From: Crenothrix polyspora | Lineage (GTDB): Bacteria > Pseudomonadota > Gammaproteobacteria > Methylococcales > Methylomonadaceae | Direction: 5' to 3' | Assembly (NCBI GenBank): GCA_945877505.1 | Contig: CAMDWT010000006.1 | Location: 1-55,912, forward strand | DNA: 55,912 bases | Shown: piece after piece, positions 53,205 through 55,912 of the stretch | Layout of the letters: the number at the start of each line of letters is the position of its first letter | Position numbering within the stretch: position 1 is the first letter of the stretch | Made by a program: the position numbers and the translations under genes | The notes under the pieces: generated by a model | The model's database searches: none | What the model was told of the DNA's origin: nothing | What the model saw: only the letters and a program-made list of their open reading frames with translations

Positions 53205-55123
53205 TAGCTTGCGTCCCCAGCCCACATCGCATTATGAAATGCTTCTTCAATCAATCTCACCTTGGTTTGCTCACCTTCCACCACGGGATTGGGCAATGTA
53301 TGACTGCCATTGATATAAATCACGCCATAAGTTTGCGCACGCGGGGAAATTTGCAACTTCTCCAGCAAAAACTTTTGCAGCACAGCGTTGTCTTTTTCGG
53401 CATCGTCGGTTTGCTTGCGCCAGATAATCAAGGTTGCTACTTTGGAAGTATTATCGCCCGGTACTTTAAGTGTGTAGCCTTCAATCAAGCGAAACCAATA
53501 ATCGCCTGTATTATCAACTTTTAGGCGTTTGCAGGTTAAGCGGGTATTTTGATCTTTAGGTAAATCGGGATCTTGTTCACGCTCAAATTCCGCACTAAAG
53601 CTATGCGGTGCAGCCATGTTTTGCACCCACAAACCAATTAACCAATTAAAGGTTTCGATCAGGTCGATAGCTTGCAGAGTTTGCTCTTCACCGCCAGGCT
53701 TTTTGATGTTCATCTTATAAGCCGTCGGATCGCGGAAATCAGCGATATTCAGCAAACTTTGGCTGGCTGAGGTTTCCACATCCAGGAAATAATTAAGCAA
53801 GTAATCTCGTTGCAAATCAGTGTTATTGGCCAAAGCCTTATCACGGCTGTTATCGGTTTTAATCACCAGATTATTCAGTGTATCTTCGTAGCTTTCCAAG
53901 CGCAGGGTTTTGAAGCAGTGGCTAATGCCCTCACGGGAAACGGGTTTGCCTTCTTTCCAGTCTTTGGAATAAACTACTTTTTGAATGCGGGGTTTCAACG
54001 CTGTGTCGAAATAACTGTTTTGCTCGATTAGAATATATTTTCGTTTAATTTTATCTTCACGATTGAGATTAATAACAGCATGTCCAGTTGATCCAGATCC
54101 TGCAAAGTAATCTAAACATATAGAATTATCTTTTCTAAATGATTGTACTGCAAAAATACATTCTTGAACTGCATAAACTGATTTGGGAAAATCAAACTTT
54201 TTTTGCCCTAAAATATTATTCAATAATTTTGAACCATAAATATTTGCGTAGAATTTTTTATCGATCCAAACAGTTTTATAACTAGTGTAAGTTTTTGTTC
54301 TCGTTATGCTTATTTCACCATTACGCTCCCTAACATTTAGCTCATGTAGAATTTTTCCTACTGAATCTTTTGAAAAAACCCACTTTCTCTCTTCTCCATC
54401 ACTGGCGACAGGATAGACGCTAATTATGTCATCATTCTGAATGTTTGAAGCGCCGGGATGGAAATGTTCATCACAGACTTCTCCAAAACCTATTATAATT
54501 CCAGATTTAACAAAGATTGGATAAAAACAATTTTTAGCAAGTGATCTTGATGAAGTTCCGCCCCAGTCTCTAAATGCTTCTTCGCTATCTTCATTCCGCT
54601 TAGTTTTACCAATTAAGTTTTTCTGTTTTTCATATGAAAAAATTGTCCATTCGTGGCTATAAGAAAAATTATCACCCTGTACGCCTGCTGGGTTATGAAC
54701 AATAGAAATGCAGTCATTTTCCCACGTTGGAAATTGATCGCTAAGCAATTGACTAAGGTTCACACCTTCATTTTCATCAATTGCAGTAATCAATGCACCA
54801 TCTCTTGTTTTTAACTTTGCGGCTAGAAAGAGCCTATCAGCCATCATTGAAATCCAAGATGAATGTTTATATGAATTTTTATAGATTATTTCGCTACTTT
54901 TAGCATTGTAAGGAGGATCAGCATACAAACATTGGATTTGTTTTCTGTATTTATATTGGATAATATTTAAAGCTTGAAAATTATCAGAATTAATTAACAC
55001 ACCATCGCATTGCGCGTCTAAATCAGGTATTTCAGCAAGCAGTTGCTGTTTAAAGCCGTCGGAAAATAAAGCGGTGTCAAGCAGAAGAAAAGGATTGTTT
55101 TTTAGAAACTCAGGCGTACACTT
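53204..55123 (-). CDS. mod: type III DNA methyltransferase Mod, main part (downstream of frameshift)
   Basis: A 639-codon open frame after the GCCA tract. It begins KCTPEFLKNNPFLLLDT, then LINSDNFQALNI, which is typical of the region just before the catalytic motifs in Mod. Motif IV DPPY and motif I FAGSGSTGHAV place it in the beta class of N6-adenine methyltransferases. The C-terminal ~280 residues form the recognition/Res-contact part. It has no ATG of its own near the front; GTG 55000 is the first internal start and would give a protein missing the N-terminus. Its TAA overlaps the res ATG. Confidence 0.85.
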   Translation of the reverse strand, partial: KCTPEFLKNNPFLLLDTALFSDGFKQQLLAEIPDLDAQCDGVLINSDNFQALNIIQYKYRKQIQCLYADPPYNAKSSEIIYKNSYKHSSWISMMADRLFLAAKLKTRDGALITAIDENEGVNLSQLLSDQFPTWENDCISIVHNPAGVQGDNFSYSHEWTIFSYEKQKNLIGKTKRNEDSEEAFRDWGGTSSRSLAKNCFYPIFVKSGIIIGFGEVCDEHFHPGASNIQNDDIISVYPVASDGEERKWVFSKDSVGKILHELNVRERNGEISITRTKTYTSYKTVWIDKKFYANIYGSKLLNNILGQKKFDFPKSVYAVQECIFAVQSFRKDNSICLDYFAGSGSTGHAVINLNREDKIKRKYILIEQNSYFDTALKPRIQKVVYSKDWKEGKPVSREGISHCFKTLRLESYEDTLNNLVIKTDNSRDKALANNTDLQRDYLLNYFLDVETSASQSLLNIADFRDPTAYKMNIKKPGGEEQTLQAIDLIETFNWLIGLWVQNMAAPHSFSAEFEREQDPDLPKDQNTRLTCKRLKVDNTGDYWFRLIEGYTLKVPGDNTSKVATLIIWRKQTDDAEKDNAVLQKFLLEKLQISPRAQTYGVIYINGSHTLPNPVVEGEQTKVRLIEEAFHNAMWAGDAS

Positions 55124-55912
55124 TTTGGCTGGCTGGCTGGCTGGCTGGCTGGCTGGCTGGCGAAAAGGCTATCGTTTATTTCTGAGATGGTAAACAGTTT
55201 TTCCCATTCATTCAGTTGTTTGTTATTGGCGGCAATCTCGGCATAAAATTTTTCCGGCACTCTATCCAGCGTGATGCAGTAATTTGTTTCAGTAACAAAT
55301 TTCTTCTTGAGCCACAACTTCTTCTGGAAGTCTTCCAATTGGGATAAAAAGGAAATCAATTTGTGGGCAATGCGGCGTAATACCCTAATTTGCGCCAGAT
55401 ACTGTTCCACTTTTGGCGCATCAGCGTTTTCTATATCATCAAGACGCATGATTTCGTTCTTGATATAAAAATCCAGCTCGCGGCGCATAAAACCGCCCAA
55501 GTCTTTATGGATAAAGTAATCCATGGTATTTAGGGCTGCATATTGATATAGATATTTTCCTAACAAGGTACGTTTGGCTTTGCTATCGGTGGGGGCAAGA
55601 CGTGACAAACCTTGCAAAAATCCGGTTGCAGAGGTGTCTTCTTTGAGTGCATTTAAAATGGCGACTTCGGCTTCAAGTAAGCGACTTTCTTGCCAAATTT
55701 TATCTTGTTTATTTGATGGTTTATCATTATCCATACGGTATTCAAACTGAATGACCAATTCGCCATCTTCTAAGGCAATCGGAGCATCCTCATGAATAAG
55801 GAAAAAACGCTTCTGATCACTGGCAGCCTTGATGTTACCATGCTCACCTTCGCTGGCATCAACAATACGAAAATGTACTTTTAAAGGAGGCTCATCATCA
55901 AGGATGGCAAAC
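55102..55912 (-). CDS. mod: type III Mod, N-terminal part (open to right edge, ends after the repeat)
   Basis: This frame enters from the right edge with sequence typical of the Mod N-terminus (FRIVDASEGEHGNIKAASDQKRFFLIHE), runs through a helical region (RVLRRIAHKLISFLSQLEDFQKKLW) and the ASQP-ASQP-ASQP repeat peptide, then stops at KSVRLSF (TAA 55104-55102). The product would be inactive because all catalytic motifs lie downstream. The apparent TTG at 55758 is internal. The true start is outside the window. Confidence 0.85.
   Translation of the reverse strand, partial: FAILDDEPPLKVHFRIVDASEGEHGNIKAASDQKRFFLIHEDAPIALEDGELVIQFEYRMDNDKPSNKQDKIWQESRLLEAEVAILNALKEDTSATGFLQGLSRLAPTDSKAKRTLLGKYLYQYAALNTMDYFIHKDLGGFMRRELDFYIKNEIMRLDDIENADAPKVEQYLAQIRVLRRIAHKLISFLSQLEDFQKKLWLKKKFVTETNYCITLDRVPEKFYAEIAANNKQLNEWEKLFTISEINDSLFASQPASQPASQPKSVRLSF
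55126..55161 (-). repeat. tetranucleotide tract (GCCA)9 inside mod
   Basis: Thirty-six bases of pure TGGC on the + strand, i.e. nine GCCA on the coding strand, encoding ASQP three times. The tract shifts the frame: in the current length the upstream frame stops 19 bases past the tract. A length of 10 or 7 copies would join it to the main Mod frame. Such tracts vary by slipped-strand mispairing. Confidence 0.95.

What the first reader, a model, noticed from the sequence alone, without database searches (positions are those of the whole stretch)
55090..55175. Phase-variable type III mod gene caught in the OFF frame by a (GCCA)9 tract
Seen in the sequence: nine GCCA repeats lie between two halves of a type III Mod that are in different frames. 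The upstream frame terminates at TAA 55104-55102. The downstream frame continues with KNNPFLLLDT and then all catalytic motifs. Arithmetic: frame joins if tract length changes by +4 or -8 bases, i.e. 10 or 7 copies. Known: type III mod genes of Haemophilus and Neisseria (e.g. modA, with AGCC-type repeats in Neisseria) switch by the same mechanism and alter many genes through methylation (phasevarions). Inference: this organism has a phasevarion, so a clonal population would contain cells with different methylomes. I do not know of this being described for an environmental gammaproteobacterium of this type.
Basis: partly seen in the sequence, partly recalled or inferred. Interest (0 to 1): 0.92.

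Follow-up and report, generated by a model that had tools for sequence, protein, structure and literature searches.

The report
Repeat-switched DNA methylase in a methanotroph
A probable methane-eating bacterium carries a DNA-modifying defence gene in which nine four-letter repeats throw the reading frame off, while two close relatives, with seven and ten repeats, have the whole gene, which points to a known kind of random genetic on/off switch in an unusual host.

Summary
Exactly nine GCCA repeats (55126-55161, minus strand) separate two frames of a type III Mod gene; the upstream frame stops at 55104-55102, the downstream frame is open from 55168 to 53204 with DPPY and FxGxG motifs. The gene shows purifying selection and its specificity domain is swapped between alleles. 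So it is very probably a phase-variable type III mod caught OFF, in a genome whose same-genus relatives are titled Methylococcaceae. Res is intact and relatives have a DrmD-like SNF2 helicase upstream, so I favour a switchable phage defence; a regulon ('phasevarion') is untested. Beyond the finding: in the order, 9 of 11 genomes with (AGCC)6 carry it in or at the start of DNA-modification methyltransferase genes of several families, some in prophages; small controls do not. Mechanism and unit are known from Neisseria modA.

The parts
55126..55161 (-). (GCCA)9 repeat tract, 36 bases, unit length not a multiple of three
   Evidence: TRF and pattern search; only copy in own genome
55102..55911 (-). 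N-terminal part of Mod (269 aa, 5' end cut by contig end), reading through the tract to a TAA
   Evidence: the 231 residues compared are 91% (G008) and 86% (G011) identical to the intact relatives
53204..55168 (-). downstream frame of Mod: linker, DPPY, target recognition domain, FxGxG, C-terminal domain; open throughout (654 codons)
   Evidence: Pfam N6_N4_Mtase 3.4e-21
54908..54919 (-). DPPY catalytic motif
54089..54106 (-). FAGSGS (SAM-binding FxGxG) motif
54116..54853 (-). target recognition domain as delimited by me between two motifs; 14-24% identical between 5 alleles against 88-96% in the C-terminal domain of 7
49866..53225 (-). Res, 1119 aa, intact; ATGSGKT at 52638-52658, DEGH at 52305-52316, YPDF...EPHG within 50106-50192
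   Evidence: Pfam ResIII, PADLOC REase_III 8.1e-177, motifs

Best explanation
A type III restriction-modification locus whose mod gene is a contingency (phase-variable) gene. Slipped-strand mispairing during replication adds or removes GCCA units. Copy numbers equal to 1 modulo 3 (7 and 10 in two relatives) give a full-length Mod of about 1090 aa; at nine copies translation ends 8 codons after the tract, before the catalytic domain. In the assembled state there is no full Mod, so Res, which needs Mod to find DNA, should be idle: neither methylation nor restriction. Rare switched cells regain both. The tract lies upstream of the exchanged specificity domain, so any domain brought in by recombination comes under the same switch. 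Shown: tract, frames, whole and split alleles with different copy numbers, purifying selection, domain exchange, intact Res frame. Inferred: slippage within clones, loss of both activities when split, and the benefit (bet-hedging between phage resistance and permissiveness, with epigenetic side effects).
For: Exact 9-copy tract and frames. Same genus: 7 copies, whole 1094 aa; 10 copies, whole 1086 aa; 7 copies with a one-base shorter 3' flank, split 463 + 616 aa. Window against relatives: dN/dS of the C-terminal domain 0.04-0.12 (6 of 6 comparisons), of Res 0.04-0.07 (4 of 4). Specificity domain 14-24% identical between 5 alleles, beside parts that are 82-96% identical. In the order, 9 of 11 genomes with (AGCC)6 have it in or at the start of DNA-modification methyltransferase genes. 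One methyltransferase locus in two records, 0 mismatches and 1 gap over 5105 bp, has 13 copies in one and at least 48 in the other (the longer is at a contig edge). Neisseria modA switches by the same unit (PMC2667262, passages).
Against: No reads: within-clone variation was not seen. Nine is a single MAG consensus and could hide a mixture or an error. Nine copies is short beside the modA tracts of 13-37 cited, so the rate may be low. Four alleles from four species are few. dN/dS is an average since the species parted and does not date the split state. The N-terminus of this very gene is missing. Of 5 same-genus Mod genes with the linker covered, 1 has no tract, so the switch is not essential to the system.
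Confidence: 0.88

Rival explanations
1. The locus is a true phasevarion: Mod ON/OFF changes the expression of many genes through methylation, as in Haemophilus and Neisseria. (This is an added role, not exclusive of the best explanation.)
For: Same gene type, same repeat unit and same allele-swapping of the recognition domain as modA. PMC7394358 states that every methyltransferase demonstrated to phase vary was also shown to comprise a phasevarion (passages).
Against: No methylome or transcriptome. Res is intact and conserved and a helicase accompanies the pair in relatives, so defence alone would explain the locus.
Confidence: 0.35
2. Assembly artefact: the real population has a whole frame and nine copies is a consensus error of the MAG.
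For: Contig of a 126-contig assembly that ends 750 bp upstream of the tract inside mod; two other same-genus Mod genes are also cut by contig ends (G010, G046).
Against: A 36-base perfect tract is shorter than usual short reads (recalled); the flanks agree in length with the whole-frame relatives; a second genome is also split.
Confidence: 0.1
3. Dead gene: a frameshift fixed in a decaying locus.
For: Split frame; an 80-aa HTH_Tnp_1 transposase fragment at 49532-49774 lies just beyond res. A tract-less relative, L040, has a stop in mod, so mod genes of this family can break.
Against: The downstream frame is open for 654 codons; dN/dS 0.04-0.12; motifs intact; whole alleles with other copy numbers.
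Confidence: 0.04
4. The two halves are made separately (re-initiation, for instance at the GTG at 55000) and work together, so nine copies is not OFF.
For: A 598-aa ORF starting with GTG holds DPPY and FxGxG; Neisseria modA uses alternative starts.
Against: Two relatives keep one continuous protein; the GTG start is only mechanical and no start signal was tested.
Confidence: 0.08

Closest known systems
modA phase-variable type III methyltransferase of Neisseria and Haemophilus influenzae
   Same: AGCC repeat unit in the ORF (Neisseria), ON/OFF by frame, a stop just after the repeats in the OFF frame, exchanged central recognition domain, adjacent res (PMC2667262 and PMC3311624, passages)
   Different: Here the tract is near codon 450 of about 1090, between an N-terminal part and the methylase domain, and copy numbers are 7-10; modA is 589-758 aa with 13-37 copies cited. 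The host is, by kinship, a free-living methanotroph. A helicase gene precedes mod in relatives.
EcoP15I-type type III R-M
   Same: Mod motifs and Res; a profile of two relatives matches EcoP15I Mod, PDB 4zcf, 6.6e-32
   Different: Mod has about 450 extra N-terminal residues; the Res family has E-P-H or D-P-H where the nuclease fold commonly has E-x-K (the E-x-K rule is recalled)
DISARM (DrmD helicase)
   Same: Upstream SNF2 helicase of relatives matches DrmD models (PADLOC 1.2e-196)
   Different: Below NCBIfam's DrmD_b cut-off (656.7 of 950 bits); the partner genes match type III Mod and Res models, not Drm models, among the PADLOC hits shown

Membership tests
Phase-variable (contingency) type III mod gene | Simple repeat of a unit not divisible by three inside the ORF, frame set by copy number | tested here: met
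Phase-variable (contingency) type III mod gene | Alleles with different copy numbers, some in frame, some not | tested here: met
   7 and 10 whole, 9 split, 7 with a shorter flank split: 4 genomes of one genus
Phase-variable (contingency) type III mod gene | Reversible change within a clone | not testable with these tools
   one consensus genome per species is held, no reads
Type III R-M system | Mod with DPPY, recognition domain, FxGxG | tested here: met
Type III R-M system | Adjacent Res with helicase motifs | tested here: met
Type III R-M system | Res nuclease motif PD-(D/E)xK | tested here: inconclusive
   YPDF...(E/D)PHG in 10 of 10 Res of this family read (window, G006, G008, G010, L041, L047, L048, L050, L051, L060); L028, more distant, has DPKG; in L127 (another family) the search pattern found nothing
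Phasevarion | Switching changes expression of many genes | not testable with these tools
   needs methylome and transcriptome
DISARM | DrmD equivalog cut-off for the helicase | tested here: not met
   relative's helicase 656.7 bits against 950; the window's contig ends before that gene, and the best match in its genome is E 8e-19 at 34% identity
DISARM | drmA, drmB, drmC beside it | not tested
   neighbours were not searched for these genes

The most novel reading that the evidence does not exclude
In the methanotroph order, (AGCC)n is a recurrent switch for DNA methyltransferases as a class: it sits in unrelated host systems (two type III mod families, an MmeI/Eco57I-like enzyme) and in methyltransferases of Mu-like and other prophages, so that methanotrophs and their phages both randomise their methylation, an epigenetic arms race in free-living bacteria rather than an adaptation to animal hosts.
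Probability: 0.45. Interest if true: 0.72.

Novelty: new member of a known kind. Interest (0 to 1): 0.6.

Why it matters
Phase-variable methyltransferases have been studied mainly in host-adapted pathogens (PMC7394358, passages), where host immunity is the usual explanation. A series of whole and split alleles in methanotrophs, with an intact restriction arm and swapped specificity, suggests phage pressure as a sufficient driver and gives a non-pathogenic setting to test it. It also means that methylomes of methane-oxidising populations may be mixed within a species, which matters for meta-epigenomics.

Tried and rejected
Dead pseudogene, fixed frameshift and chance repeat were considered and rejected. 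DISARM membership was considered and not kept.

I first thought that AGCC tracts might mark methyltransferases everywhere. They do not: in viral contigs 82 stretches hold (AGCC)7; the table listed 80 and I read those 80 (L136-L215; L216 and L217 not read). I took one best frame of 60 codons or more per tract, which gave 49 (one of two overlapping frames of L159 dropped), so 48 were scanned (with L126 as a 49th row); 5 of the 48 match N6_N4_Mtase (L151, L154, L169, L194, L207), and L151 and L207 are near-identical records. Taking one frame per tract may miss some. Outside the order, 0 of 3 genomes have it in a methyltransferase: an ankyrin-repeat gene region, the end of an amidohydrolase gene, and frames without any Pfam match. 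(AGTC)6 in the same order: 7 of 311 genomes; 0 of 7 inspected tracts (one per genome; a second of G282 not read) lie in a methyltransferase, by my reading of the frames of 45 codons or more, of which one was scanned.

The tally 9 of 11 counts homologous loci: 4 are the same Mod family, and G280 and G296 share the D12 family. By family it is 5 of 7 loci (Fisher p 0.021 against 0 of 7; by genome 0.0023), a small sample chosen after the fact. G088 has only a 186-aa frame without a Pfam methylase match of its own; I call it a methylase because the near-identical viral locus L154 matches. Of the two misses, G169's tract lies in a frame of the other strand that matches the O6-methylguanine-DNA methyltransferase domain, a repair protein, which I do not count.

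A structure model of Mod was asked for 9 times and the machine was busy each time, so the tract's place in a linker rests on sequence alone. The survey by Atack and others 2018 is not held; I know it only from citing passages. In one search one line meant to place KNNPFLLLDT used the wrong frame; its coordinates are not used. One search read four of seven tracts in the wrong orientation; one search replaced it.

Full report
OBSERVATION. On the minus strand the window reads GCCA nine times in a row at 55126-55161. It is the only tetranucleotide array of four or more copies in the window and the only (GCCA)4 in the 2.46-Mb, 126-contig genome; shuffles give none. In 456 kb of that genome (20 contigs, 20 kb each, plus the window) only two other arrays with units of 4 to 9 bases reach four copies, (TCAAC)10.4 and (ATCT)8.5; the only frame of 45 or more codons next to either is one of 63 codons. 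The upstream frame, open from the contig edge, reads through the tract and stops at 55104-55102; the other frame is open from 55168 to 53204. The window is a whole contig that ends inside mod, and no other contig was found to hold the missing part.

WHAT THE GENE IS. The downstream part matches Pfam N6_N4_Mtase and the PADLOC type III methyltransferase model PDLC03646; the next gene, 49866-53225, is an intact type III Res. A profile of two intact relatives matches solved type III Mod proteins, EcoP15I among them. Mod of this family has about 450 residues before the methylase domain. Of 25 loci found in named genomes, 21 have helicase sequence upstream of Mod; the other 4 are L040 and L041, whose contigs begin at mod, L046, whose contig begins 586 bp before mod, and L061, a distant hit. 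Two of the 21 (L042, L052) have a helicase with a large internal gap. Res follows Mod in 15 of the 25 (L037-L043, L045, L047, L048, L050, L051, L054, L055, L060), at some distance in some, besides a weak match in L061; the contig or held stretch is short in many of the others. The helicase is DrmD-like but below the DISARM cut-off.

THE ALLELE SERIES. Three same-genus genomes have the tract in the same place: G008 (CAIQNQ010000089.1) 7 copies with one frame of 1094 aa, G011 (CAIXDX010000044.1) 10 copies with 1086 aa, G006 (CAIXAE010000042.1) 7 copies, a 3' flank one base shorter, split into 463 and 616 aa. These records are titled uncultured Methylococcaceae bacterium; that they are lake methanotrophs is recalled and inferred from titles, and the window's own record is unnamed. 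The window's flanks have the same length as those of G008 and G011, so its split state is due to the copy number alone.

DISTRIBUTION. In the genus 7 of 35 genomes carry this Mod (G000, G006, G008, G010, G011, G043, G046); the linker is covered in 5, with the tract in 4 and without in G043. Across the order 23 of 311 genomes have the N-terminal part at E 1e-30 or better; in the stretches fetched for them no repeat array above my thresholds was found other than these four and one T9 run (in G010 and G046 the contigs end before the linker). Of the 25 named loci, 18 cover the linker and 3 of these 18 have the tract; the other 15 have a non-repetitive linker. A near relative, L040, has a short linker without repeats and a stop at codon 112.

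SELECTION AND RECOMBINATION. Between the window and G008 the part before the tract is 91% identical in protein (dN/dS 0.08), the C-terminal domain 96% (0.07), Res 89% (0.05), while the recognition domain is 20% identical; over all 10 pairs of 5 alleles (window, G008, G011, G006, L040) the recognition domain is 14-24%. Two relatives, L039 and L042, dropped out of that count because my motif search did not place their domain limits. The 48 residues around DPPY are only 56-60% identical between the window and the others, against 75-92% among the others, so in the window the foreign block begins earlier, about 130 bases after the tract. Window against six relatives, C-terminal domain: dN/dS 0.04-0.12. 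So the gene is not decaying on the scale of species, and specificity is exchanged as a block.

BEYOND THE FINDING. (AGCC)6 occurs in 11 of 311 genomes of the order; the pattern read backwards in 0 of 311. Besides the four Mod genes: G090, a second type III mod family with ResIII beside it; G158, an MmeI/Eco57I-like methylase in two overlapping frames; G280 (two loci, plus a contig end that overlaps one of them) and G296, D12 (Dam-like) methylases, the latter beside a phage tail protein GPD; G088, a methylase beside a Phage_Mu_F match below its cut-off (27.4 of 29.6 bits). Two are not in DNA-modification genes: in G169 the tract lies 33 bases upstream of a DUF445 frame and, on the other strand, inside a 141-codon frame that matches the O6-methylguanine-DNA methyltransferase domain (DNA repair); in G179 it lies 66 bases upstream of the first ATG of a CheB-CheR-PAS protein. 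That is 9 of 11 genomes, or 5 of 7 loci when homologues are counted once. Controls: (AGTC)6, 0 of 7 inspected tracts in the order; outside the order, 3 of 365 sampled genomes have (AGCC)6 and 0 of 3 in a methyltransferase; viral contigs, 5 of 48 frames scanned. In viral contigs L151, L194 and L154, 10 to 13 bases separate an ATG from the tract. G088's locus and viral contig L154 match over 5105 bp with no mismatch and one gap, but have at least 48 and 13 copies, the most direct sign of length change that I found; the longer one is at a contig edge, where assemblers err. The two D12 genes of G280 are 91% identical, with 18 and at least 22 copies.

MECHANISM. Slipped-strand mispairing is inferred from unit, length and alleles, as established for modA, where AGCC copy number sets the frame (PMC2667262, passages). 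Res needs Mod to bind DNA (PMC3311624, passages), so OFF should be safe for the cell. A review says that res may be broken in phase-variable type III systems, whose role is then regulatory (PMC3874151, passages); here res is intact and conserved, which tilts me to switchable phage defence. The Res nuclease motif reads (E/D)PHG in 10 of 10 family members read, so its activity needs a test.

LITERATURE. 17.4% of type III mod genes in REBASE carry such repeats, and they occur in commensal and environmental organisms (PMC7394358, passages). Ten full-text searches listed no paper whose title concerns phase-variable methylases in methanotrophs; the four aimed at that were 28 (6 papers, off the subject by title), 29, 45 and 48 (none). 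No paper was read whole; passages were read in PMC7394358, PMC12456177, PMC3311624, PMC11475388, PMC2667262 and PMC3874151. The library lacks most subscription papers, so this is weak evidence of absence.

VERDICT. The finding is real and correctly read as to frame and switch; the regulon is not shown. It is a new member of a known kind in a little-studied host, and the order-wide pattern is the more original lead.

Noticed in passing
L131, L132, L133 (G280, G296); L126 (G088); L151, L154, L194, L207: DNA methyltransferases with (AGCC)n tracts at or near the start, in viral contigs and, beside phage genes, in methanotroph-order genomes.
   Followed up: partly
L129:7385-7810 (G169): (GGCT)9 inside a 141-codon frame matching the O6-methylguanine-DNA methyltransferase domain (Pfam PF01035, 2.7e-10): perhaps a switched DNA-repair gene.
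   Followed up: partly
G000:C20:15359-15410 (L250) and G000:C16:3219-3252 (L246): (TCAAC)10.4 and (ATCT)8.5 arrays in the window's own genome, apparently intergenic; possible promoter-spacing switches.
   Followed up: partly
L130:5148-5191 (G179): (GGCT)11, 66 bases upstream of the first ATG of a CheB-CheR-PAS protein (Pfam).
   Followed up: partly
L253-L257 (G278, G281-G284): (AGTC)12-18 arrays in mostly non-coding, similar-looking flanks in five genomes of one genus; role unknown.
   Followed up: no
L042 and L052, around 3224-4360: SNF2 helicase gene with residues about 34-625 missing, followed by a YoeB-like gene (Pfam YoeB_toxin in L023) before mod.
   Followed up: partly
window 49532-49774: 80-aa HTH_Tnp_1 transposase fragment just beyond res.
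   Followed up: no
L128:7947-10782 (G158): MmeI/Eco57I-like methylase in two overlapping frames; the tract itself lies in the first frame.
   Followed up: no
window 50106-50123: Res family has EPHG (or DPHG) in place of the common ExK end of the nuclease motif, in 10 of 10 members read.
   Followed up: partly
G000:C6, G010:C316 and C462, G046:C221: Assemblies of this locus break inside mod in three of seven same-genus genomes, perhaps because strains differ there.
   Followed up: no
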